Source: Lachnospiraceae bacterium (lineage in GTDB: Bacteria > Bacillota > Clostridia > Lachnospirales > Lachnospiraceae). Taken from it: a DNA stretch of 38,836 nucleotides. Under the pieces are notes generated by a model, which worked only from the letters and a program-made list of their open reading frames with translations, had not been told where the DNA came from and ran no database searches. Below, piece by piece: positions 10,049 through 20,223 of this stretch. The translations under genes were made by a program, and so were the position numbers. Location: the NCBI GenBank assembly GCA_017482485.1, contig JAFUMV010000072.1, positions 1-38,836 on the forward strand, in the 5' to 3' direction. How positions within the stretch are numbered: position 1 is the first letter of the stretch; every line of letters starts with the position of its first letter.

Positions 10049-10099
10049 ACGGGAAAAAAATTAAGTACGGAATCGAAAAATTCACAATTTCTTAAGGAC

Positions 10100-10128
10100 T
10101 TTTCATTTCCTGTCATTTGTTGTAAAAT
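10100..10128 (+). promoter_or_regulatory. Possible promoter for trmB and the antiporter operon
   Basis: TTTTCA (10100-10105) and TAAAAT (10123-10128) are 17 bases apart, 55 bases before trmB. A consensus TTGACA also lies at 10135-10140 but lacks a well-placed -10. This is the only intergenic gap from which the following co-directional run could start. Confidence 0.35.
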
Positions 10129-10182
10129 ATAAAATTGACAGATAAGCGTTTTACACTTTGAAAAATAGGAGAGAGGGGTCAA

Positions 10183-10821
10183 ATGAGATTAAGAAATATA
10201 ACAGGTTCCCGGGAAGTGATCGGAGAAAGCGTTTATGTGGTGCACGATCTGGAAACATCTGCGGGAAAATGGAAAGAAATCTTCGGAAATAAGAATCCCA
10301 TTTTTGCGGAAATCGGCATGGGAAAAGGGCGTTTTGTCATGGAAATGGCCAGACGAAATCCTGATATTAATTTTATCGGAATTGAAAAATATTCCAGCGT
10401 CCTGCTTCGGGCGATTCAGAAGATGGAAGAGGAGGAGCTGCCGAATGTGAAGTTCATCCGGATGGATGCGGAAGATATCGACAAGGTTTTTGCCAAAGGC
10501 GAGCTGGATCGTATCTATCTGAATTTTTCCGATCCCTGGCCCAAGGACAGACATGCCAAGAGAAGGCTTCCTTCCAGACAGTTTCTGGCAAGATATGATA
10601 AGATTTTAAAAAAGGACGGAGTCATTGAGTTTAAGACGGATAACCGCCCGCTTTTTGATTTTGCGGTGGAGGAGCTTGAGCCTGCCGGCTTTAAGATTAA
10701 GGAACTTACTTACGATCTGCATGCGGACGCACGCCTGTGCGAAGGGAACGTGATGACGGAATACGAAGAGAAGTTTTCTTCTCAGGGAAATCCGATCTGC
10801 AAATATATTATTTATAGATAA
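10183..10821 (+). CDS. trmB: tRNA (guanine-N7-)-methyltransferase
   Basis: The 212-residue enzyme methylates G46 in the variable loop of tRNAs using S-adenosylmethionine. The SAM-binding motif is EIGMGKG at 43-49, the acidic IGIEKY strand follows at 65-70, and the family signature SDPWPK at 116-121 is followed by HAKRRL at 124-129, which are the TrmB catalytic and tRNA-contact residues. Length is normal. ATG 10183 has an AGGAGAGAGG site. The stop lies only 15 bases before the first antiporter gene, with no terminator, so it is probably the first gene of that operon; the pairing looks like cotranscription rather than shared function. Confidence 0.95.
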   Translation: MRLRNITGSREVIGESVYVVHDLETSAGKWKEIFGNKNPIFAEIGMGKGRFVMEMARRNPDINFIGIEKYSSVLLRAIQKMEEEELPNVKFIRMDAEDIDKVFAKGELDRIYLNFSDPWPKDRHAKRRLPSRQFLARYDKILKKDGVIEFKTDNRPLFDFAVEELEPAGFKIKELTYDLHADARLCEGNVMTEYEEKFSSQGNPICKYIIYR

Positions 10822-10836
10822 TCAGGGGGGCGGGAT

Positions 10837-11307
10837 ATGTATTTTCTGTATTTTCTGGTCTGGATTATTTTCAACGGGCAGGTTACTTTGGAAATCGTGC
10901 TCTTCGGCCTTGTGATTGCAGCGGCGGTTTATTGGTTTAGCTGCAAGTTTATCGGCTGGAGCATTCAAAAGGATCTTTTTATTCTCAAAAAAAGCTGGCA
11001 GATTCTCAAATATGTGGGACTGCTTTTATGGGAAATCATCAAAGCGAATATGACGATGATCATGCTGATGATTTCTTACAAAAATGAACCTTCGCCGGTT
11101 CTGGTGCGGATTCATACAAACCTTCAGACAAAGACTGCCAGAGTGGTTCTGGCAAATTCCATCACGCTGACGCCGGGAACCATCACGGTTTTGCTGGAAG
11201 GGGATGAGCTGATGGTGCATTGTCTGGACAAGTCTCTTTCGCAGGGACTTGAAAACAGTTCCTTTGAACAGGCGCTGTTAAAGATAGAAGGAGGGGCAAA
11301 GGTATGA
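10837..11307 (+). CDS. mrpE: Mrp-type Na+/H+ antiporter subunit E (MnhE/MbhA-like)
   Basis: The 156-residue membrane protein has two N-terminal hydrophobic spans within residues 1-40, a third near 60-85, and a soluble C-terminal domain carrying NSITLTPGT near 108-116, the hallmark of MrpE. In Mrp complexes subunit E is a structural piece at the end of the membrane arm, needed for assembly of the cation antiporter. It opens the ten-gene cluster; GGGGGGCGGG precedes the ATG. Its stop overlaps mrpF by four bases (ATGA), a sign of translational coupling. In archaeal membrane-bound hydrogenases the equivalent, MbhA, is also first. Confidence 0.9.
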   Translation: MYFLYFLVWIIFNGQVTLEIVLFGLVIAAAVYWFSCKFIGWSIQKDLFILKKSWQILKYVGLLLWEIIKANMTMIMLMISYKNEPSPVLVRIHTNLQTKTARVVLANSITLTPGTITVLLEGDELMVHCLDKSLSQGLENSSFEQALLKIEGGAKV

Positions 11308-11615
11308 GTCCTGTTTTGGAAAATGCGTATCATGTAGTTTTTGTGGGCGCGCTGATTTTTCTTGCGGTGATGCTGATATTCTGTTTTATCCGTGCAGTGC
11401 GCGGCCCAAGAGTGGCGGACCGCATTGTAGCCGTTAACATGATCGGCACTATCGTCATGGTCATTATTACGATTCTTTCTTTATTATTGAAGGAAGGATA
11501 TCTGGCAGATATCTGTATCATTTATGCCATGATCAGTTTTTTGGCGGTAATCGTACTGACCAAGGTATATATGGGCGTTTATTTTGAAAAGAAGCAAAAG
11601 GGGGAGAAAAAATGA
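11304..11615 (+). CDS. mrpF: Mrp-type antiporter subunit F
   Basis: The 103-residue protein has three membrane spans (about 12-34, 42-63 and 68-90). RGPRVADRIVAVN, near 34-46, is the conserved MrpF/MbhB motif between spans one and two. It is a small structural subunit that helps carry cations across the Mrp complex, and its loss abolishes antiport in bacterial Mrp systems. It overlaps mrpE and mrpG by four bases each. The C-terminus is short and lysine-rich (KKQKGEKK). Placement E-F-G matches both Mrp and Mbh operons. Confidence 0.9.
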   Translation: MSPVLENAYHVVFVGALIFLAVMLIFCFIRAVRGPRVADRIVAVNMIGTIVMVIITILSLLLKEGYLADICIIYAMISFLAVIVLTKVYMGVYFEKKQKGEKK

Positions 11616-11947
11616 TTCTGGAATGGATTCGTTTTATTGTCGGAACGATAATTTTATGCTGCGGTCTTCTCATTTTTGCGCTGGAAGTTTTCGGCGTTTT
11701 CCGATTCGATTTTGTGCTGAACCGGATGCATGCGGCGGCGATGGGAGACACGCTGGGAATCGGCATTTCTCTGATCGGACTGATCATTTTTTCCGGATTT
11801 AACTTTACCAGCCTGAAAATGTTTCTCGTGGTAATTTTTCTGTGGTTTGCATCTCCTGTCTCTTCTCATCTGATCGGCAGGCTGGAAGTGACAACGGATG
11901 AAGAGCTGGAGAACTATTGTGAGATAGAGGATAACTGCCAACCGTGA
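11612..11947 (+). CDS. mrpG: Mrp-type antiporter subunit G
   Basis: The 111-residue protein has three predicted membrane spans (about 5-27, 45-62 and 66-85). The FDFVLNRMHAAAMGDTLG segment, near 33-50, matches the conserved subunit-G motif (R-x-H-A-A/x-x-x-x-T-L-G). It ends in an acidic cytoplasmic tail of about 20 residues. It starts inside the mrpF stop (ATGA) and is followed 16 bases later by the MbhD-like gene. Its family role is structural, within the cation-translocating core formed by E, F and G. Confidence 0.9.
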   Translation: MILEWIRFIVGTIILCCGLLIFALEVFGVFRFDFVLNRMHAAAMGDTLGIGISLIGLIIFSGFNFTSLKMFLVVIFLWFASPVSSHLIGRLEVTTDEELENYCEIEDNCQP

Positions 11948-11963
11948 TGATAGGGGAGTGACT

Positions 11964-12230
11964 ATGAACATATTTGCTTATATTTTAATGGGCTTTTTGA
12001 TCGTGTGTGCCATTTCTGTCACCTTTTCCAAAAAGCTGTTGAATTCCATTCTGATTTTCATGTCTTACAGCCTGATTATGTCAATCATCTGGATGCTTTT
12101 GGAATCGCCTGACCTGGCGATCACAGAAGCGGCGGTGGGTGCCGGCGTAACCAGCGTGCTGTTTTTTGTAACCCTGAAAAAAATCAACGCCATGATGGGG
12201 GAGGATGAACAGAATGAAAAGGAAGAATAA
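11964..12230 (+). CDS. MbhD-like subunit (MrpA C-terminal domain, DUF4040)
   Basis: The 88-residue, three-span membrane protein corresponds to the MbhD part found at the C-terminal end of bacterial MrpA, here as its own gene. The motif SPDLAITEAAVGAG, near residues 49-62, is diagnostic; its Asp and Glu sit in a membrane span and are thought to line the cation path. The acidic tail is cytoplasmic. ATG 11964 is preferred over the in-frame GTG 11958, since GGGGAG lies six to ten bases ahead. It overlaps the next gene by 17 bases. A free-standing MbhD is the archaeal Mbh/Mbs arrangement. Confidence 0.85.
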   Translation: MNIFAYILMGFLIVCAISVTFSKKLLNSILIFMSYSLIMSIIWMLLESPDLAITEAAVGAGVTSVLFFVTLKKINAMMGEDEQNEKEE

Positions 12231-13206
12231 TGCTTTTTTTCGCTGGTTTTTCGGAGAAGAGGACACGCTGATTGGAAAAGTGGAAATGAAGGCGCAGCCC
12301 GAATACGAACAGAAGGAGGGCGAAATTCGGGAGCTCATGGAGGAGCGGGCTCAGCTGAGGGAACAGATTTATGATGTCAGGGATAATACGAAGCTGAAGC
12401 TGTTTCATAAAATGTACAATATTGCGGCGGTGATTTTCTGTATCACGCTGATTTCCATTCTTTTGGTAAATGTTTCCTGGCTTCCGCATTACGGAGATGG
12501 TGATAATCCGGTGAACAATGAGGTTTCTGCCCGTTACATTGAGAGCGGACTGCAGGAAACCGGCGCGGTGAATATCGTGACGGGCATGATTCTGGACTAT
12601 CGTGCCTTTGATACCTTCGGGGAATCCAATGTGCTGTTTATCGCTACAGTGACCGTATTGATTTTAATGCGTCTGGATAAGGAAAAGAAGGCACCGGCAA
12701 AACCCGGTGTGGAGGTTTACAGCAAAGCGGAAGACGATATGACAATGACCATTGCAGAGGCACAGGCCAATGACCGGATTTATGAGCCCAAGAATGATGC
12801 TATTTTGCAGAAGGTTGCGGGATTTCTGGTGCCCATCATTTTTATTTTCGGTATTTATGTGGTGTTGAACGGACATCTTTCTCCGGGCGGAGGCTTCAGC
12901 GGCGGTGCCATTATCGGTGCAGGACTGATTCTGTATCTGAACGCTTTCGGATTTGAAAAGACAGAGCGGTTCTTTACAGAGAAAACCTACAAATGGATTT
13001 GCTTTGTAGCCCTGACTTTTTACTGTCTGGCAAAGAGCTATTCCTTTTTTACGGGTGCAAATCATCTGGAGAGCGGCATTCCGCTGGGAACGCCGGGGGC
13101 TATTGTGTCCAGCGGTCTGATTCTGCCCCTGAATATCTGCGTCGGCATGGTAGTTGCCTGTACGATGTACGCATTTTATGCGCTTTTCAGGAAAGGGGGA
13201 TTTTAA
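12214..13206 (+). CDS. MbhE-MrpB fusion subunit
   Basis: The 330-residue protein joins two subunits that are normally separate. After a hydrophilic, charged N-terminus (1-65, with a possible coiled coil in the QKEGEIRELMEERAQLREQ stretch), residues 65-155 are MbhE-like: one span, then a region with NEVSARYIESG and TGMILDYRAFDTFGES, and a second span. Residues 195-325 are an MrpB domain with four spans and the motif GHLSPGGGFSGG, near 224-235. MbhE corresponds to the extreme C-terminus of MrpA. ATG 12214 has GGGGGAGG at a proper distance; ATG 12205 abuts that site. The fused part may bridge the two arms of the complex. The long charged N-terminus is not typical of MbhE. Confidence 0.85.
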   Translation: MKRKNNAFFRWFFGEEDTLIGKVEMKAQPEYEQKEGEIRELMEERAQLREQIYDVRDNTKLKLFHKMYNIAAVIFCITLISILLVNVSWLPHYGDGDNPVNNEVSARYIESGLQETGAVNIVTGMILDYRAFDTFGESNVLFIATVTVLILMRLDKEKKAPAKPGVEVYSKAEDDMTMTIAEAQANDRIYEPKNDAILQKVAGFLVPIIFIFGIYVVLNGHLSPGGGFSGGAIIGAGLILYLNAFGFEKTERFFTEKTYKWICFVALTFYCLAKSYSFFTGANHLESGIPLGTPGAIVSSGLILPLNICVGMVVACTMYAFYALFRKGGF

Positions 13207-13584
13207 ATGTTCGGTCCCAATTTGTTTGCCAACTATGGAGAAGCCGTGGCGGTGATTTTGTTCGGCATCGGGTTTTCCAACCTGCTTTTACAGAAGAATC
13301 TGATTAAAAAAATTATCGGTCTTAATATCATGGATACCGCTATTTATCTGTATCTGGCGGAAAAAGGATATATTGCGGGGCGGGTGGCGCCCATCGTGGT
13401 GGACGGCGTTCAGGAGGTTTCCGCCTATATCAATCCAATTCCCAGCGGTCTGGTGCTGACAGGCATTGTGGTTTCCGTATCCGTAACGGCGATCATGCTT
13501 TCTTTGACCATTCGCTTATACCGCAGATATCATACGCTGGATCTGGATGAGATTTCCATGAGGCTTAAAAAGGAGGGAATGTGA
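13207..13584 (+). CDS. mrpC: Mrp-type antiporter subunit C (NuoK-like)
   Basis: This 125-residue protein has three membrane spans with the order of NuoK: residues 7-25, 31-52 and about 75-102. NLLLQKNLIKKIIGLNIMDT, near 20-39, is the conserved subunit-C segment. In complex I its counterpart NuoK joins the quinone module to the antiporter arm; in Mrp it sits between MrpA and MrpD. Start ATG 13207 follows AGGAAAGGGGG. Its stop shares one base with the mrpD start. Confidence 0.88.
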   Translation: MFGPNLFANYGEAVAVILFGIGFSNLLLQKNLIKKIIGLNIMDTAIYLYLAEKGYIAGRVAPIVVDGVQEVSAYINPIPSGLVLTGIVVSVSVTAIMLSLTIRLYRRYHTLDLDEISMRLKKEGM

Positions 13585-15077
13585 TGAACTTTATTCAGAA
13601 TTTTCCGTTCTTTTCCATCATTCTCTCAATGTTTTCAGGAATTGTCAGTTCCGTGCTGTGCCCTAAGGCAGCGAGGTGGGTGAACACTTTCCTGATCAGT
13701 GCAGTGGGAATTATGTCCGCCATTCTGCTGGGGTATCTGGCACAGACAGGAGAATCCTATACCTATATGATGGGACATTTTCCCGCACCCTGGGGAAACG
13801 AAATCAGAGCCGGTGTGCTGGAAGCCGGTATGGCATTGTTTTTCTGTGTGATTATGCTGCTGTCCATGCTGGGCGGTCATAAAAAGCTTTTAAGAGAAGT
13901 GGAGTACAGTAAGCATAACCTGTATTACATTCTGGTGGATCTGCTTTTAAGCTCGCTGCTTGCGCTGATTTATACCAACGACCTGTTCACAGCATATGTT
14001 TTTGTGGAAATCAACACGATTGCAGCCTGCGGTCTGATCATGATACGGCAGATCGGACGTACCATTGAAGCGGCTGTACGTTACATGATCATGAGCCTTC
14101 TGGGTTCCGGTCTGTTTTTGATGGGACTTTGTACGCTGTATGATCTGACGGGACATCTGCTGATGTCAAACATTAAGGAAAGCGTTGCCCAGCTGGCAAC
14201 ACAGCATGAATATACGATTCCGCTTCTGACTACCATCGGCCTGATCAGCGCGGGTCTTGCGATTAAGAGCGCGCTGTTTCCGTTCCATTCCTGGCTGCCG
14301 GATGCCTATGGATATTCGACGGTTTCCTCTGCGGCCATGCTGTCCAGTCTGGTTTCCAAGGGATATATTTTCCTGCTGATCAAAATTTTCTACCGTGTGA
14401 TCGGATTTGATATCATTGCGGACAGTAAGGTGATCAATGTGCTGTTCGTATTCGGTGTGCTGGGCATGATTTTCGGTTCTTTAAGCGCGATTCGAGAGAA
14501 CGATATCCGACGTATGATTTCTTTTTCAAGTGTAGCGCAGATCGGTTATATTTACATGGGATTTGGTCTTGGAACTCAAATTGGTATCGTTGCAAGTGTT
14601 TTCCATATTTTATCCCATGCGGCTACCAAATCACTTTTGTTTATCGCCGCCATCGGTCTGACGGATGTATCAAACGGAAGCCGTAAATTTCAGGATTTGA
14701 CCGGCGCCGGATACCGGAACAAAATTGCCGGTGTTGCCTTTACCGTGGGTTCTCTTTCCATGGTGGGCGTTCCCATATTTTCCGGCTTTGTGAGCAAACT
14801 TCTGTTTGCGGAAGCGGCTATTGGTGACAATATGAAAATGATGCCCGCAGTCATTGCCATGGCTGTCTCTGTCATATTGAATGCGATTTACTTCATGAAA
14901 ACCGTGATACGCATTTATGTGCCGGAACACAGAGAAGACTGTCAGGTTATCACAATGAAAAGCGAGAAGGTTTATGCGGTGACGCTGATCTGCTTTATTG
15001 TGCTGAACATATTTCTCGGCATGTGTTCCCAGCCGATTGTGAAATGGATTGAATCCGGACTTTCCATGTTCGGATAA
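13584..15077 (+). CDS. mrpD: Mrp antiporter subunit D (NuoM/NuoN-like), first of four antiporter-like subunits
   Basis: The 497-residue protein has about 14 membrane spans and the proton_antipo_M fold. The residues used for proton or sodium movement are present: Glu142 in TM5 (FVEIN), Lys228 in TM7 (AIKSALFPFHSWLPDA) and Lys259 in TM8 (SKGYIF). The HSWLPDAY signature matches MrpD/MbhH. ATG 13584 overlaps the previous TGA by one base; GTG 13581 just before it is the alternative. It is followed 15 bases later by a second antiporter-like gene. By position it equals MbhH, the D-subunit of membrane-bound hydrogenases. Confidence 0.9.
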   Translation: MNFIQNFPFFSIILSMFSGIVSSVLCPKAARWVNTFLISAVGIMSAILLGYLAQTGESYTYMMGHFPAPWGNEIRAGVLEAGMALFFCVIMLLSMLGGHKKLLREVEYSKHNLYYILVDLLLSSLLALIYTNDLFTAYVFVEINTIAACGLIMIRQIGRTIEAAVRYMIMSLLGSGLFLMGLCTLYDLTGHLLMSNIKESVAQLATQHEYTIPLLTTIGLISAGLAIKSALFPFHSWLPDAYGYSTVSSAAMLSSLVSKGYIFLLIKIFYRVIGFDIIADSKVINVLFVFGVLGMIFGSLSAIRENDIRRMISFSSVAQIGYIYMGFGLGTQIGIVASVFHILSHAATKSLLFIAAIGLTDVSNGSRKFQDLTGAGYRNKIAGVAFTVGSLSMVGVPIFSGFVSKLLFAEAAIGDNMKMMPAVIAMAVSVILNAIYFMKTVIRIYVPEHREDCQVITMKSEKVYAVTLICFIVLNIFLGMCSQPIVKWIESGLSMFG

Positions 15078-15092
15078 TAGAGGAGAGGAAAT

Positions 15093-16571
15093 ATGAATGA
15101 GTCTTTGAAGATTTTATTTCCCATATTTTTTCCGATTGTGATGGGCCTTTTGCTTCTGTGCGGACAGACACCTAAGCGCGGCCGGACGATGACTCTCTAT
15201 ACGGGATGTGTGCTGATTATTACAGCGCTTTCCGTGTTGGGGCTTGTGACAGGGCCGGAAGTATCCTTTACGCTGTTTTATCTGACAGGCAGGCTGCCCG
15301 TGTATTTTCATCTGGACAGTATGGGAAAAATATTTGCTGCGGTAGTTTCTGTAGTATGGGTATTGGCCGGCTTTTTTTCCTTTGAATATATGAAAAAAGG
15401 AAAAGAACAAAAGCGGTTTTTCGGATTTTATTTAATGGTGTACGGCATTTTGATGGCGCTTGACTTTGCCGGAAATCTGATCACCTTTTACATATTTTAC
15501 GAAATGATGACTCTGCTGAGCATGCCTCTGGTTTTGCATGAGCGCACAAAAGAGGCGATTATGGCAGGTCTGAAATATCTGTTTTATTCCTTCTGCGGCG
15601 CATATATGGTGCTGTTTGGCCTGTATTTTGTCTATCGATATGCAAATACGCTGACTTTTACCGCAAAAGGTGTTCTGGATATGACTCTGGTAGAAGGAAA
15701 AGAAGGACTGCTTTTAGTGGCAGCGTTTTTCATGCTGCTGGGTTTCTCCGTAAAGGCGGGCATGTTTCCGATGCACGGCTGGCTGCCCACCGCGCATCCG
15801 GTGGCACCGGCACCGGCATCCGCAGCGTTGTCGGGCATTATTGTAAAAAGCGGTGTGCTGGGAATTATCCGCGTGGCTTATTACATTTTCGGTGCGGATT
15901 TCCTAAAAGGAACCTGGGTGCAGATTACACTGATCACTTTGAGCCTTGTGACCGTGTTTATGGGATCGATGCTGGCCTATCTGGAAAAGGGCCTCAAGAA
16001 ACGCCTTGCCTATTCCACCGTCAGTCAGGTGTCCTATATTTTATTTGGTCTGTTTCTATTCGACCAGACCGCAATGACAGGTTCCGTGCTGCATGTGGTT
16101 TTTCACGCATTCATTAAGTGCTGCCTGTTTCTGTGCGCCGGCGCGATCATTTATCAGACCGGGAAGCACAATGTGGACGAGCTTAGAGGAATCGGTAAAC
16201 AAATGCCTGTCACCATGTGGTGCTATACCATCTGTTCGCTGGCGCTGATCGGTATTCCGCCCGCCAGCGGGTTTATCAGCAAGTGGTATCTGTGCATTGG
16301 TGCCCTGCACACAAAGATGCCTGTGATTTCCTGGCTGGGGCCCGTAATTTTACTGGTGAGTGCACTGCTGACGGCCGGATATCTGCTTCCCATCACAATC
16401 AACGGATTTTTCCCGGGAGCAGATTATGACTATGCTGCGCTGGAGAAGAAAGAGCCTGCAAAACAGATGGTGATTCCGATTCTGATTCTGGCAGGATTGG
16501 CATTGATTCTGGGCATTGCTCCCGAGCTTTTAATGAATGGATTTTCGGCAATTGCCGGTCAGCTGATATAA
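15093..16571 (+). CDS. Second antiporter-like subunit (complex I NuoL/M family)
   Basis: The 492-residue protein has about 14 membrane spans. Charged residues of the ion channel are kept: Glu137 (FYEMMTL), Lys221 (FSVKAGMFPMHGWLP) and Lys252 (VKSGVLG). The HPVAPAPASA motif after GWLPTA is typical of NuoL/HyfB/Mrp-A-like proteins rather than MrpD. AGGAGAGG precedes ATG 15093. A second antiporter-like subunit is found in Mbs and Mbh relatives, but here two more follow, all in one orientation. No C-terminal extension is present. Which subunit sits where in the complex cannot be read from sequence. Confidence 0.88.
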   Translation: MNESLKILFPIFFPIVMGLLLLCGQTPKRGRTMTLYTGCVLIITALSVLGLVTGPEVSFTLFYLTGRLPVYFHLDSMGKIFAAVVSVVWVLAGFFSFEYMKKGKEQKRFFGFYLMVYGILMALDFAGNLITFYIFYEMMTLLSMPLVLHERTKEAIMAGLKYLFYSFCGAYMVLFGLYFVYRYANTLTFTAKGVLDMTLVEGKEGLLLVAAFFMLLGFSVKAGMFPMHGWLPTAHPVAPAPASAALSGIIVKSGVLGIIRVAYYIFGADFLKGTWVQITLITLSLVTVFMGSMLAYLEKGLKKRLAYSTVSQVSYILFGLFLFDQTAMTGSVLHVVFHAFIKCCLFLCAGAIIYQTGKHNVDELRGIGKQMPVTMWCYTICSLALIGIPPASGFISKWYLCIGALHTKMPVISWLGPVILLVSALLTAGYLLPITINGFFPGADYDYAALEKKEPAKQMVIPILILAGLALILGIAPELLMNGFSAIAGQLI

Positions 16572-16586
16572 AAAGGGGGTGCAGAG

Positions 16587-18062
16587 ATGAATCCTGTTAT
16601 GATGGTGGCTGCCATTTTGATGCCGATTCTGGGAGGCAGCCTTGTAATGGTAATTCCTTTCAAAAAAAGAACGCATATGCTGGCATATCTTGAGACCATT
16701 GTGCTGATTACAAGCGTCCTGGTATGGAGCATCATTTCGGAAGGTCCCACAGAGGCCATTCCGGTGGTGAAGTTTGTGAATAATCTTTCCCTTTCCTTTA
16801 AGCTGGACGGCTGCGGCATGGTTTTCTCGGGGCTGGTGAGTGCCCTGTGGCCGCTGGCAATGCTGTATTCCTTTGAGTACATGAAAAAGGAGAGCAATGA
16901 AAAGGTATTTTTCATGTTTTATACCATGACTTATGGTGTAACACTGGGAATTTCGTTTGCGGAAGATATGCTGACCATGTATTTCTTCTATGAGCTTCTG
17001 ACGCTGGTGACGGTGCCGCTGGTACTTCACACGCTGTCAAGGGAAGCGATTCTGGCGTCCAGAAAATATTTGTATTATTCTCTGGGCGGCGCGGCTTTTT
17101 CCTTCATCGGTCTTGTATTTTTAATGATTTACGGCTCCACGGTGAACTTCACCTATGGCGGGGTGCTGGATATGGAGACACTGGGGGATAAGGCGGACAC
17201 GCTGCTGCTCATTTATGTAATCGCATTTTTGGGATTTGGTGTAAAAGCTGCGGTATTTCCTTTCAACTCCTGGCTGCCCCAGGCGGGCGTGGCCCCCACA
17301 CCGGTTACGGCGCTTTTGCATGCCGTGGCAGTGGTAAAGGCGGGTGCCTTTGCAATCATCCGTCTGACCTATTACAGTTTCGGCGCAGATTTTTTACAGG
17401 GAACATGGGCACAGAATGTGGTGATGGGAATTGTCATTTTCACAATTGTCTATGGCTGCAGCCGTGCGCTGAAGGAGACGCATATCAAGCGCAGACTTGC
17501 TTATTCCACAATCAGCAACCTGTCCTATATTCTGTTTGGTGTGACCATGATGTCACCTCTGGGACTGGTAGGCGCCTTTGCACACATGATTTTCCATGCG
17601 GTGATGAAAATCTGTTCTTTCTTCTGTGCGGGTGCGATCATGCACCAGACGGACAAGCATTATGTGCATGAACTGGACGGGCTGGGCAGAAAGATGCCCA
17701 AAGTATTCGGCATCTTTACGGTTTCAGCGTTGGCCCTCATGGGCGTACCGGGACTGTGCGGATTTATCAGTAAATGGCAGTTGGCGAATGCGGCGGTTAT
17801 GAGCGAAAATGTGCTTTCTTATGTGGGCGTCGGTGCGCTGCTGGTATCGGCTCTGCTGACGGCAGTTTATATGCTTTCGATCGTGATTCGGGCATTTTTC
17901 CCGCCGGAAGGGTTTGATATGGAAAAGATTGCCGGATATAAGGATCCCAACTGGCTCATGCTGTTTCCTTTGTTTGTGTTTGCGGTGTTTATTGTGATTT
18001 TCGGAGTCGGTTCGGAATCACTGATCCGGTTTTTTACGGATATAGCCAACGGGGTGATGTGA
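16587..18062 (+). CDS. Third antiporter-like subunit (complex I NuoL/M family)
   Basis: The 491-residue paralogue has the same span pattern as the gene before it. Ion-path residues Glu136 (FFYELLTL), Lys220 (FGVKAAVFPFNSWLP) and Lys251 (VVKAGAF) are kept, but the loop after SWLPQA reads GVAPTPVTALLHA rather than HPVAPAPASA, so it is a distinct paralogue and not a recent copy. The N-terminal 60 residues are also different. AAAGGGGGTG lies ahead of ATG 16587. It ends one base before the next gene's ATG, so the two are translationally coupled. Confidence 0.88.
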   Translation: MNPVMMVAAILMPILGGSLVMVIPFKKRTHMLAYLETIVLITSVLVWSIISEGPTEAIPVVKFVNNLSLSFKLDGCGMVFSGLVSALWPLAMLYSFEYMKKESNEKVFFMFYTMTYGVTLGISFAEDMLTMYFFYELLTLVTVPLVLHTLSREAILASRKYLYYSLGGAAFSFIGLVFLMIYGSTVNFTYGGVLDMETLGDKADTLLLIYVIAFLGFGVKAAVFPFNSWLPQAGVAPTPVTALLHAVAVVKAGAFAIIRLTYYSFGADFLQGTWAQNVVMGIVIFTIVYGCSRALKETHIKRRLAYSTISNLSYILFGVTMMSPLGLVGAFAHMIFHAVMKICSFFCAGAIMHQTDKHYVHELDGLGRKMPKVFGIFTVSALALMGVPGLCGFISKWQLANAAVMSENVLSYVGVGALLVSALLTAVYMLSIVIRAFFPPEGFDMEKIAGYKDPNWLMLFPLFVFAVFIVIFGVGSESLIRFFTDIANGVM

Positions 18063-18063
18063 T

Positions 18064-20223
18064 ATGGGAAAACATTATAGTTTACTGTTTTTGCTGCTCT
18101 GGCCCTTTGCGGGAGCTGCAGCTTCCTGGCTGATCGGCCGTAAGAGCAAAGAGAAGAGAAACCTGCTGGCACAGGCCGTGGCAGTGGTGGAATGCATTGC
18201 CTTTCTTGTGCTGTTTATCATTTTCTTTGCGGGAATTGACGGCGGATATCGGCAGATGTATTTGAAATGTCCGGGTTTTGGCATGGGATTGAAACTGTGC
18301 CTGGACGGATTCCGTTCTCTTTACTGTCTGGTAGCATCCTTTATGTGGATGATGACCACACTTTTTTCCGAAGAATATTTCGGACATTATCGGAACCGGA
18401 ACAGATATTATCTGTTTTTGCTTCTGACGCTGGGCGCAACGGTGGGTGTGTTCTTATCCGCTGATTTGTATACAACCTTTATTTTCTTTGAGATCATGTC
18501 CTTTACTTCTTATGTATGGGTGGCACATGATGAGACAAAATCGTCCCTGCGGGCGGCGGAGACATATCTTGCCGTAGCAGTGGTGGGCGGCCTGGTGATG
18601 CTGATGGGTCTGTTTTTGCTTTATGATATGTTCGGCACGCTGGAAATCAGTGAATTGGGCAGAAGAATTATCTCCCTGCGGGCGGCCTCCGCTGTGCCCG
18701 CTGTTTCGGGAGAAGAAGTTTTTGGAGCGTTGTCCTTTTCCAAAACAAGGCTGTATGTGGCAGGCGGTTGTCTTTTGTTTGGCTTCGGCGCAAAAGCGGG
18801 CGCATTTCCGCTGCATATCTGGCTGCCCAAGGCGCATCCGGTGGCACCTGCACCGGCCAGCGCACTTTTGTCCGGTATTTTGACAAAAGCAGGCATTTTC
18901 GGTATTGTGGCCGTAACCTCATCTTTGTTTTTATATGATGGAAAATGGGGCGCGTTTCTGCTTTTGATCGGCGTTTTAACCATGGTAGTGGGAGCTGTTT
19001 TGGCGGTATTTTCCATCGATTTAAAGCGCACGCTGGCATGTTCCTCCGTTTCTCAGATCGGATTTATTCTGACAGGCATCGGCATGATGGTGCTTTTGGG
19101 AACGGAAAACGGTCTGGCTGCGAGAGGAAGCCTTCTGCACATGGTGAACCACTCTCTGTTCAAGCTGATCCTGTTTATGACGGCCGGTGCGGTATTCATG
19201 AAAATCCATAAGCTGGACTTAAATGAAATCAAAGGTTTCGGCAGAGGAAAGTACTTTTTGCAGGCAGTATTTCTGGCAGGCGCGCTGGGAATTGCCGGCG
19301 TTCCGGGATTTTCCGGTTATGTCAGCAAGACGCTGATTCACGAATCCATCGTGGAGTACAGAAATATTGCAGCATCAGAAAGCCTGGTATGGGCGAACAA
19401 TGCTTTTACCGCATTTTTCACCTCTTCCGCCTGGCTGGGAATCGTTGAATGGCTGTTTTTGATCAGCGGCGGTCTTACCGCAGCATATATGCTTAAACTG
19501 TATGTTGTTCTTTTTGTAGAAAAAAATGACAGCACCCAGACGCAGCTCAAATATGACGCCATCCGCCCGAATTTTATGGGGATAAAGAGCAAAATTGCGC
19601 TGGGCGGCAGCGCGGTGCTGATTCCGATTCTCGGTCTTTTGCCCCATCAGCTGATGGACCACTTCGCAGAGCTTGGAGAAGGATTTTTCGGCAGCAGCGG
19701 TGTGACGGAGGAAATTTCCTATTTCAGCATTGAAAATCTGAAAGGCGCACTGATTTCTCTGGCAATCGGCGCACTGGTTTATTTCGGCTTTGTTCGTCCG
19801 GTTCTGACAAAGAAGGAAGGAGAAAAGCGGATCTATTTAAACAGATGGCCGCAGTGGCTGGATCTGGAAAACCTGGTTTACAGACCGCTTCTGTGTACGG
19901 TGCTGCCGCTGATTTTCGGCACAGCTTCCAGATTTCTGGATCGCCTTCTGGACAGCATCGTTGTTCTGCTTCGCAAAACCATTTATCGTGACAGCCCGAT
20001 ACCGCACGAACTGGATGAAGGCAACTGGCTGACCTATACGGCAGGAAGCTTTATCGATTCGGCAGAGACTGTGCTTCACAGGAAAACAGATTATAAGCAC
20101 AAGTTCGCGATGATTTATGAGGATTTGTCGGAAAACAGCATCATTATCGGAAGAAGCCTTTCCTTCGGTCTGTTCATGGCCTGTGTCGGACTGCTTTTGA
20201 CACTGTTGTATCTGTTGTTGTAA
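18064..20223 (+). CDS. Fourth antiporter-like subunit, long NuoL/HyfB-type with C-terminal extension
   Basis: The 719-residue protein has an N-terminal antiporter domain (1-480) with Glu143 (FFEIMSF), Lys244 (FGAKAGAFPLHIWLP) and Lys275 (LTKAG), then HPVAPAPASA at 258-267. Beyond 480 it has roughly 240 extra residues with three or more hydrophobic spans (near 505-525, 565-585 and 695-719) and amphipathic stretches, similar in position to the lateral helix of NuoL that braces the neighbouring antiporter subunits. It is the last gene of the antiporter cluster and stops with TAA at 20221-20223. Its length and end position suggest it is the distal clamp of the membrane arm; this is inference from NuoL. 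Confidence 0.85.
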   Translation: MGKHYSLLFLLLWPFAGAAASWLIGRKSKEKRNLLAQAVAVVECIAFLVLFIIFFAGIDGGYRQMYLKCPGFGMGLKLCLDGFRSLYCLVASFMWMMTTLFSEEYFGHYRNRNRYYLFLLLTLGATVGVFLSADLYTTFIFFEIMSFTSYVWVAHDETKSSLRAAETYLAVAVVGGLVMLMGLFLLYDMFGTLEISELGRRIISLRAASAVPAVSGEEVFGALSFSKTRLYVAGGCLLFGFGAKAGAFPLHIWLPKAHPVAPAPASALLSGILTKAGIFGIVAVTSSLFLYDGKWGAFLLLIGVLTMVVGAVLAVFSIDLKRTLACSSVSQIGFILTGIGMMVLLGTENGLAARGSLLHMVNHSLFKLILFMTAGAVFMKIHKLDLNEIKGFGRGKYFLQAVFLAGALGIAGVPGFSGYVSKTLIHESIVEYRNIAASESLVWANNAFTAFFTSSAWLGIVEWLFLISGGLTAAYMLKLYVVLFVEKNDSTQTQLKYDAIRPNFMGIKSKIALGGSAVLIPILGLLPHQLMDHFAELGEGFFGSSGVTEEISYFSIENLKGALISLAIGALVYFGFVRPVLTKKEGEKRIYLNRWPQWLDLENLVYRPLLCTVLPLIFGTASRFLDRLLDSIVVLLRKTIYRDSPIPHELDEGNWLTYTAGSFIDSAETVLHRKTDYKHKFAMIYEDLSENSIIIGRSLSFGLFMACVGLLLTLLYLLL

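What the first reader, a model, noticed from the sequence alone, without database searches (positions are those of the whole stretch)
10837..20223. Hydrogenase-less Mbh-order Mrp complex with four antiporter-like subunits
Seen in sequence: ten co-directional genes run E, F, G, MbhD, MbhE+B, C, D, then three more NuoL/M-type proteins, all four of the latter with intact channel Glu and Lys residues (E142/K228/K259; E137/K221/K252; E136/K220/K251; E143/K244/K275). Established: archaeal Mbh and Mbs operons have exactly this A-H order, followed by NiFe-hydrogenase or sulfane-reductase subunits (MbhJ-N); bacterial Mrp is ordered A-G with one MrpA and one MrpD. Inference: here the redox module is missing from its place and replaced by three more ion-pumping subunits. 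This may be a large stand-alone cation antiporter, or an antiporter arm that docks on a redox partner encoded elsewhere.
Basis: partly seen in the sequence, partly recalled or inferred. Interest (0 to 1): 0.78.

Follow-up and report, generated by a model that had tools for sequence, protein, structure and literature searches.

The report
Four-pump Mrp antiporter of gut anaerobes
A gut bacterium carries a ten-gene operon for a membrane ion exchanger of the Mrp kind, built with four proton-channel subunits instead of the usual one or two and with no attached enzyme; the same set recurs across its bacterial family, which offers a natural test of what each extra channel subunit does.

Summary
Ten tightly packed co-directional genes (10837-20223) encode E, F, G, MbhD, an MbhE-MnhB fusion, C and four NuoL/M-type subunits, each with intact TM5 Glu and TM7, TM8 and TM12 Lys. 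No hydrogenase or complex-I anchor lies in the operon, nor was one found in the genome. In the Lachnospiraceae-dominated set of loci from public genomes, 67 of 67 with enough upstream sequence carry all four antiporter subunits and all six small ones. Of 150 family genomes 26 have the operon; 25 of those 26 show no NuoH-like protein. It is best read as a stand-alone group 3 Mrp cation/proton antiporter, not an Mbh that lost its hydrogenase. A tree shows fixed ends and a growing middle: D2 and D3 are duplicates of the single middle subunit of three-antiporter relatives. The MrpF aspartate of the Na+ path is Asn in this lineage, but Asp in 3 of 3 hydrogenase-linked relatives and 5 of 5 solved structures. 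In 10 of 20 distant loci such an Mrp block sits beside Rnf genes, in none of 132 closer ones. Activity, ion and stoichiometry are untested. New variant of a known kind.

The parts
10837..11307 (+). MrpE/MbhA-like subunit (156 aa), 15 bp after the preceding co-directional ORF (10183-10821; TrmB-like by recall), behind a G-rich ribosome-binding-like stretch
   Evidence: PF01899 MNHE E 5e-30; sequence
11304..11615 (+). MrpF/MbhB-like subunit (103 aa); Asn45 where the solved MrpF/MbhB chains have Asp (A. flavithermus D35, B. pseudofirmus D38); Asp39 (the Asp of the DR pair) kept
   Evidence: PF04066; PDB alignments; family columns
11612..11947 (+). MrpG/MbhC-like subunit (111 aa)
   Evidence: PF03334 E 3e-20
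11958..12230 (+). MbhD-like subunit (90 aa; MrpA C-terminal part); Glu57 aligns with MBH E69, the counterpart of A. flavithermus MrpA E706
   Evidence: PF13244; best PDB hit 6u8y_D, then 6cfw_D
12205..13206 (+). MbhE + MnhB fusion (333 aa), fused as in MbsE, with a ~65-aa hydrophilic N-terminal extension that is partly conserved; Asp136 and Glu140 in the motif of the proposed Na+ exit site
   Evidence: PF20501 + PF04039; 6u8y_E; conservation
13207..13584 (+). MrpC/MbhG/NuoK-like subunit (125 aa); Asp43 as in MBH, Tyr47 in place of the MBH/Mrp His
   Evidence: PF00420; 6u8y_G, 6cfw_G; columns
13581..15077 (+). D1, first (by inference proximal) antiporter-like subunit (498 aa), closest solved chain 6u8y_H (MBS)
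   Evidence: PF00361; E 3e-50; D1 clade UFBoot 100
15093..16571 (+). D2, middle antiporter-like subunit (492 aa)
   Evidence: PF00361; 6cfw_H; paralogue of D3, UFBoot 100
16587..18062 (+). D3, middle antiporter-like subunit (491 aa)
   Evidence: PF00361; 6cfw_H; paralogue of D2
18064..20223 (+). D4, last antiporter-like subunit (719 aa) with a C-terminal extension: hydrophobic segment ~558-582, a long amphipathic/hydrophilic stretch, last hydrophobic segment 692-719 (lateral-helix-like layout, inferred)
   Evidence: PF00361; A1 alignment; hydropathy; D4 clade UFBoot 100

Best explanation
The operon encodes one stand-alone, redox-free Mrp-type (CPA3, group 3) cation/proton antiporter. Inferred layout: the cation module (E, F, G, MnhB) joins the NuoJ/K-like unit (MbhD, MbhE, C), which contacts D1; D2 and D3 follow, and D4 caps the row and braces it with a C-terminal lateral helix. 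Each antiporter subunit is expected to carry a pair of proton half-channels, all coupled electrostatically to a single cation path. The complex would then exchange one Na+ (or K+) for several H+, linking the Na+ economy of the cell (Rnf, and an ATP synthase whose c subunit looks Na+-type, both in the genome) to pH and proton-motive force. Shown: genes, order, conservation, key residues, origin of D2/D3, absence of a detectable redox anchor. Inferred: single complex, linear order, direction, ion, stoichiometry.
For: Gene content and order. Four antiporter genes in 67 of 67 and 21 of 21 scored loci; all six small subunits in 67 of 67 and 19 of 21. No complex-I-type redox anchor in the own genome nor in 25 of 26 operon-bearing family genomes. 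All four antiporter subunits keep the charged axis. Coupling and exit residues are kept: MbhD Glu57 in 63 of 63 rows, Asp136 and Glu140 of the fusion in 71 of 71, MrpB-type Phe231 in 71 of 71, matching residues used in the mechanisms of PMC7419157 and PMC9568556 (passages). Tree: first and last subunits each one clade (UFBoot 100), D2+D3 a duplication of the middle subunit (100). Rnf in the genome; c subunit with a Gln and an AETT stretch (its reading as a Na+ motif is recalled). Functional precedent: for the P. furiosus stand-alone group 3 Mrp, Na+/H+ exchange was inferred from deletion strains (PMC8415708, passages).
Against: No activity data. The MrpF Asp on the proposed Na+ entry route, called invariably conserved in PMC7419157, is Asn in all 58 rows of the named set, and the MrpC histidines are replaced by Thr/Ser and Tyr, so the cation path differs from the solved ones. 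Lateral-helix length did not clearly track the number of antiporter subunits. Two of 21 family loci have the array without E, F, G beside it. No structure prediction could be completed.
Confidence: 0.62

Rival explanations
1. The complex is an ion-pumping arm that works with Rnf: it binds Rnf, or shares its ion currency so closely that the two act as one respiratory unit, with Rnf as the redox input.
For: In 10 of 20 loci from more distant Bacillota at least three Rnf genes lie in the same 20-kb stretch; in 8 of these an apbE gene lies on the other side of the Mrp block. In L239 Pfam matched RnfC, RnfD, the FMN_bind (RnfG-like), two Rnf-Nqr and an Fe-S (RnfB-like) protein, then after the Mrp block ApbE and NusG_II, with 94 bp between rnfB and mrpE. 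Rnf is present in the own genome.
Against: 0 of 25, 0 of 80 and 0 of 27 closer loci have Rnf adjacent. In the family Rnf is about as common without the operon (110 of 124) as with it (24 of 26; of the two without, G006 is only 67% complete but G114 is 98%). Rnf pumps ions on its own by established knowledge. The 20 distant loci were picked mainly from the top of a ranked list, not at random.
Confidence: 0.15
2. It is an antiporter for another cation, such as K+, or with relaxed selectivity, because the Na+ entry Asp is Asn and the MrpC His pair is lost.
For: Asn in 58 of 58 rows of the named set, window included, and in 19 of 21 fetched family, 19 of 21 class and 15 of 16 phylum loci with a scored F gene; the exceptions are three hydrogenase-linked clusters (L063, L203, L204: Asp), L065 (Ser, one scored antiporter gene) and L235 (Thr). 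Asp in 5 of 5 solved chains. MrpC Tyr47 in 65 of 65 rows of the named set.
Against: The coupling Glu, the exit Asp/Glu and MrpC Asp43 are kept. In the class set MrpC position 47 varies (Phe 15, Tyr 5, Asn 2, Ile 1 of 23 rows). In B. subtilis, Asn at this MrpF position had only mild effects in the native host (as reported in PMC7419157).
Confidence: 0.2
3. The four antiporter subunits are alternatives, so that more than one complex with one or two of them is assembled from the operon.
For: Other Bacillota run comparable operons with two or three; the duplicates D2 and D3 are close paralogues.
Against: All four genes are kept together in 67 of 67 and 21 of 21 scored family loci (86 distinct loci), in fixed order with fixed first and last members, which fits a linear stack better than exchangeable parts.
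Confidence: 0.15
4. A decayed or split Mbh/MBS respiratory complex whose redox arm is encoded elsewhere or was lost recently.
For: Order and closest solved chains are of MBS/MBH type for the eight subunits searched (D1-D4, F, MbhD, the fusion and C).
Against: No NuoH (PF00146) or 49-kDa (PF00346) homologue in the genome; 25 of 26 operon genomes lack PF00146; real Mbh clusters in these lineages belong to another antiporter branch in the tree.
Confidence: 0.04

Closest known systems
Stand-alone group 3 Mrp of Pyrococcus furiosus (mrpEFGBB'CD; PMC8415708, passages read)
   Same: Same gene order, MbhD/E-type part outside MrpA, no MrpA, no redox module; a Na+/H+ exchange role in pH adaptation was inferred from deletion strains.
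   Different: One antiporter subunit (MrpD) against four. There the MbhD and MbhE parts are joined in one MrpB, here MbhE is joined to MnhB. Its residues were not aligned here.
MBS membrane arm (PDB 6u8y; PMC7684303, passages read)
   Same: Closest solved chains for MbhD, the MbhE-MnhB fusion (also a fusion there), C and D1; a lateral helix on the last antiporter subunit (in D4 inferred).
   Different: MBS has two antiporter subunits and a redox arm anchored by MbsM; both redox arm and anchor are absent here.
Bacillus-type Mrp (PDB 7qru, 6z16; PMC9568556, PMC7419157, passages read)
   Same: Redox-free cation/H+ antiporter with the same small subunits and charged axis.
   Different: MrpA carries the MbhD/E part and an antiporter unit in one protein; two antiporter units in all; Asp at the MrpF site.
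Complex I with extra pumps: Nitrospira 2M, rhizobial green complex I, Manganitrophaceae Complex_I_3 (PMC9040806, passages read; the original 2M paper is not held)
   Same: Pumping subunits added to the membrane arm, four or five in all; an extension of the lateral helix was proposed to fit them.
   Different: Those are complex I homologues with a redox arm; here there is no redox input.
Anaerobe Mrp clusters such as Unc8 MrpEFGBBBCD + MrpDD (PMC6305446, passages read)
   Same: EFG-BBB-C-D order and extra MrpD genes already annotated.
   Different: No tree or residue test of these subunits in the passages read.

Membership tests
Mrp/CPA3 antiporter, group 3 | Subunits E, F, G, B, C and D-type, with MbhD/E-type parts | tested here: met
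Mrp/CPA3 antiporter, group 3 | No MrpA gene, one or more MrpD-type genes (definition from PMC8415708) | tested here: met
   The MbhD and MbhE parts lie in other genes; in D4 Pfam shows only Proton_antipo_M
Mrp/CPA3 antiporter, group 3 | Charged axis (TM5 Glu, TM7/TM8/TM12 Lys) in the antiporter subunits | tested here: met
   Invariant in D1, D2, D4; one exception among 25 D3 rows
Mrp/CPA3 antiporter, group 3 | Cation-path residues of solved Mrp (a mechanistic trait, not part of the group definition) | tested here: inconclusive
   Coupling and exit acids kept; MrpF Asp is Asn, MrpC His pair replaced
Mrp/CPA3 antiporter, group 3 | Cation/H+ antiport activity | not testable with these tools
   Needs vesicle assays
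Energy-converting hydrogenase Mbh / MBS | Redox arm and NuoH-like anchor in the operon or genome | tested here: not met
Respiratory complex I | NuoH and NuoB/C/D/I core | tested here: not met
   PF00146 and PF00346 absent from the genome; NuoB-type proteins were only sought within relatives' loci, NuoI- and NuoC-type not at all
Complex with several antiporter subunits braced by a lateral helix | Lateral helix length fits the number of antiporter subunits | tested here: inconclusive
   structure prediction not available

The most novel reading that the evidence does not exclude
A redox-free antiporter whose H+-to-cation ratio is set by the number of antiporter subunits: evolution lengthens the row from the middle (one, two, three, four) between fixed ends, so the Lachnospiraceae version exchanges about four or more H+ per cation and can build a steep Na+ gradient from a weak proton-motive force, with an altered cation entry route (MrpF Asp to Asn). 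In relatives it is wired to Rnf.
Probability: 0.27. Interest if true: 0.82.

Novelty: new variant of a known kind. Interest (0 to 1): 0.57.

Why it matters
Whether every antiporter-like subunit of complex I and its relatives moves a proton per cycle, and how they are coupled, is still debated. Here the same redox-free machine occurs in nature with differing numbers of antiporter subunits, so the H+/cation ratio can be measured against subunit number without electron transfer in the way. It also points to a widespread, apparently unstudied ion exchanger in gut Lachnospiraceae and to a genetic link between Mrp and Rnf in other Bacillota for which my searches found no description.

Tried and rejected
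Redox partner elsewhere in the genome: searched with PF00146 and PF00346, nothing found; co-occurrence in 150 family genomes argued against it. Rnf co-occurrence in the family: hardly any enrichment. A phylum-wide Rnf search (213 of 398 genomes) gave a match list cut before its end, so I did not use it for an adjacency count.

Lateral-helix length as a count of antiporter subunits: the TM15-TM16 segment measured on an alignment had medians of 148 (60 loci of the named set scored as four), 135.5 (14 class loci scored as three, range 60-180) and 172 (6 class loci scored as four). A hydropathy rule gave the opposite order (64.5 for 78 family loci, 112 for 9 three-antiporter loci), probably because the amphipathic helix itself passes the threshold in many family members. 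I drop this test as inconclusive.

Sigma-54 control of the window operon: a sigma-54 activator lies right upstream of eight relatives (phmmer; Pfam for L189), with a strict -24/-12 match (recalled consensus) upstream of E in 4 of 23 class loci but 1 of 69 loci of the named set; no such activator was found in the family loci, so it does not apply to the window. A first motif regex for MrpF failed on all 21 loci and was replaced by an alignment.

Greedy ORF choice hid short or overlapping genes in some loci; antiporter counts here use the raw hits.

Literature: the terms Mrp antiporter and Lachnospiraceae together gave 0 papers; Rnf, Mrp, antiporter, rnfB, operon gave one archaeal review (listing only); terms for extra MrpD led to the complex I cases cited. 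So 'not found described' rests in an open-licence library only.
Full report
What is there. The window holds ten co-directional genes at 10837-20223 with overlaps of 4-26 bp or gaps of 0-15 bp, starting 15 bp behind an ORF that looks like TrmB (recalled). Pfam assigns MrpE, F, G, MbhD, an MbhE-MnhB fusion, C (NuoK-like) and four Proton_antipo_M proteins. No NCBIfam match shown reaches its curated cut-off (for D1-D4 the 25 best of 71-75 are shown); the best are Mrp, hydrogenase-4 and complex I models.

Genome. The assembly has 3.48 Mb in 153 contigs and is about 90% complete. Its Proton_antipo_M hits are these four genes plus two on contig C130. C130 is 99.96% identical to window 10093-15642 over its whole 5550 bases (2 mismatches) and so looks like assembly redundancy. 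No NuoH-like or 49-kDa-like protein was found; the control rang in 11 of 14 named genomes in both. RnfD is on C4, amid ORFs of the sizes and order of RnfC-D-G-E-A-B. The single ATP-synt_C hit lies next to ORFs that look by eye like F-type a, b and delta subunits; the c subunit has the Gln and the AETT stretch that I recall as a Na+-type signature (the one search for a source, listed nothing on point).

Conservation. Of 150 family genomes 46 match D4 at E <= 0.001; 26 of them (window included) match at E <= 1e-130, which I take as orthologues. I fetched stretches for 24 of the other 25 (25 loci; G128 was left out) and scanned them. The nearest is an uncultured Eisenbergiella at 68% identity. 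Among loci with at least 8 kb upstream of D4, D1-D2-D3-D4 occur in 67 of 67 (two with a split or doubled ORF) and 21 of 21. All six small subunits occur in 67 of 67 and 19 of 21: L059 and L060 lack E, F, G nearby, L059 also MbhD. Thirteen of 80 and 4 of 25 loci were too short or had no scored D4 and were not counted. Two loci are common to both sets (L040/L138, L046/L150), so 86 are distinct. No NuoH, NuoB, NuoD or sigma-54 activator was found in these 105 stretches; three other fetched family loci (L063, L067, L068) do carry redox genes and are other systems.

Redox co-occurrence. In the same 150 genomes 18 have PF00146; of the 26 operon genomes only G010 does, on another contig. PF03116 (RnfD) is in 134 of 150: 24 of 26 with the operon, 110 of 124 without. 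Some of these genomes are far from complete (G006 67%, G128 69%). The operon thus follows neither a hydrogenase nor, clearly, Rnf within the family.

Residues. The charged axis is conserved in all four subunits. The cation module is mixed. The acids at the coupling and exit sites, as named in PMC7419157 and PMC9568556 (passages), are conserved: MbhD Glu57 in 63 of 63 rows, fusion Asp136 and Glu140 in 71 of 71 (rows include the window). Asp131 of the fusion is not (42 Asp, 23 Thr, 6 others of 71). MrpF Asn45 stands where five of five solved chains have Asp. It is Asn in 58 of 58 rows of the named set, in 19 of 21 class loci and 19 of 21 fetched family loci. The four exceptions are three hydrogenase-linked clusters (L063, L203, L204, all Asp) and L065 (Ser), a locus with one scored antiporter gene. 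Among the 16 phylum loci scored, 15 are Asn and L235 is Thr. Steiner and Sazanov call this Asp invariably conserved and find Leu there inactive; they also cite mild effects of Asn in B. subtilis. So Asn is a clean lineage marker and may signal a changed entry route, but need not abolish transport.

Evolution. I fetched 27 loci from the class search (41 of 391 genomes at E <= 1e-60; the 27 are the strongest and a few weaker ones). By raw hits 12 have three antiporter genes and L187 three with the first split; L181, L182, L183, L185, L186 and L199 have four and L197 four with a split gene; L184 is the window's family (four); L203 and L204 have one and are hydrogenase clusters; L188, L205, L206 and L207 are truncated or other systems. 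Outside the redox-bearing L203-L205 no NuoH, NuoB or NuoD homologue was found in these stretches. MbhE and MnhB are separate in most three-antiporter loci and fused in L181, L182 and L184-L186. So four is not confined to the window's family.

A tree of 80 antiporter proteins puts the first subunits of the sampled Mrp-type operons in one clade (19 sequences, UFBoot 100) and the last subunits in one clade. D2 and D3 of the window lineage (with L182 and L229) are sister groups, nested with the single middle subunit of three-antiporter operons. A second route to four is seen in L231 and L199, whose extra middle subunit groups with the Rnf-linked type. The deeper grouping of all middle subunits is weaker, and one internal grouping has 68. 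At least one sequence, the 420-aa middle gene of L197, fell under the length cut; L181, L185, L186 and L242 were not in the tree. The picture is a row with fixed ends and a growing middle.

Rnf link in distant relatives. Of 398 phylum genomes 128 match the D4 profile at E <= 1e-60, many of them probably other Mrp or complex I types. I fetched 20 stretches, mainly from the top of that list (19 genomes). In 10 of 20 at least three Rnf genes lie in the stretch, and in 8 of those apbE lies on the far side of the Mrp block. The Mrp blocks there have two (L235-L237), three (L238-L241, L244, L247) or four (L242) antiporter genes. In L239 Pfam supports the series RnfC-D-G-E-A-B, Mrp block, a MOSC/MoCF protein, ApbE, NusG_II. 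None of 25 + 80 family and 27 class loci shows this. I saw no description of it in the passages read or in searches. In Methanosarcina acetivorans a role of Mrp in balancing Na+ and H+ beside Rnf is discussed (PMC6703419, passages). This makes coupling to Rnf plausible for the distant forms and possible, not shown, for the window.

Mechanism. The most economical reading is a group 3 Mrp antiporter with four proton modules coupled to one cation path. For the two-module Mrp a stoichiometry of 2 H+ per Na+ is supported by the model of PMC9568556. [quoted passage not shown] If each added module carries one H+, four modules would favour Na+ export driven by a small proton-motive force, useful to a fermenter with a Na+-linked ATP synthase. 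The reverse mode (Na+ in, H+ out), inferred for the one-module P. furiosus Mrp at low pH (PMC8415708), would be harder to drive with a high ratio. Direction and ratio are inference.

Novelty. The hydrogenase-less Mbh order is known (P. furiosus; anaerobe clusters in PMC5703873 and PMC6305446). Four or five pumps are known in complex I (PMC9040806). What I did not find described is a redox-free Mrp with four antiporter subunits kept across a family, its middle-duplication history, the Asn marker and the Rnf-flanked relatives. I file it as a new variant of a known kind.

Noticed in passing
L235-L242, L244, L247 (phylum-level relatives): Mrp operons with two to four antiporter genes close behind Rnf genes, in 8 of 10 cases with apbE on the other side; L236 has only two antiporter genes behind Rnf and no small Mrp subunits.
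   Followed up: partly
window 12205-~12400 (N-terminus of the MbhE-MnhB fusion): A partly conserved hydrophilic extension of about 65 aa (consensus with FFRW, G.kDPY, VEM.PQ and VYD) of unknown role, facing the cytoplasm by inference.
   Followed up: partly
L187, L189, L190, L194, L195, L196, L199, L231: A sigma-54 activator of about 660-685 aa right upstream of mrpE (phmmer; Pfam for L189). Strict -24/-12 sites upstream of E in L187, L189, L190 and L196.
   Followed up: partly
L059 and L060: Four-antiporter array with C and MbhE-MnhB, but no E, F, G beside it.
   Followed up: no
L233 and L245: Longer arrays: seven antiporter genes around split sets of small Mrp subunits in L233, five antiporter genes in L245.
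   Followed up: no
window 10093-15642 against contig C130 of the same assembly: 5550 bases 99.96% identical, likely assembly redundancy or a near-identical strain.
   Followed up: yes
L063: A member of the same family with a separate Mbh-type cluster: Mrp small subunits, one 657-aa antiporter, NuoH-, NuoB- and 49-kDa/NiFe-like proteins.
   Followed up: partly
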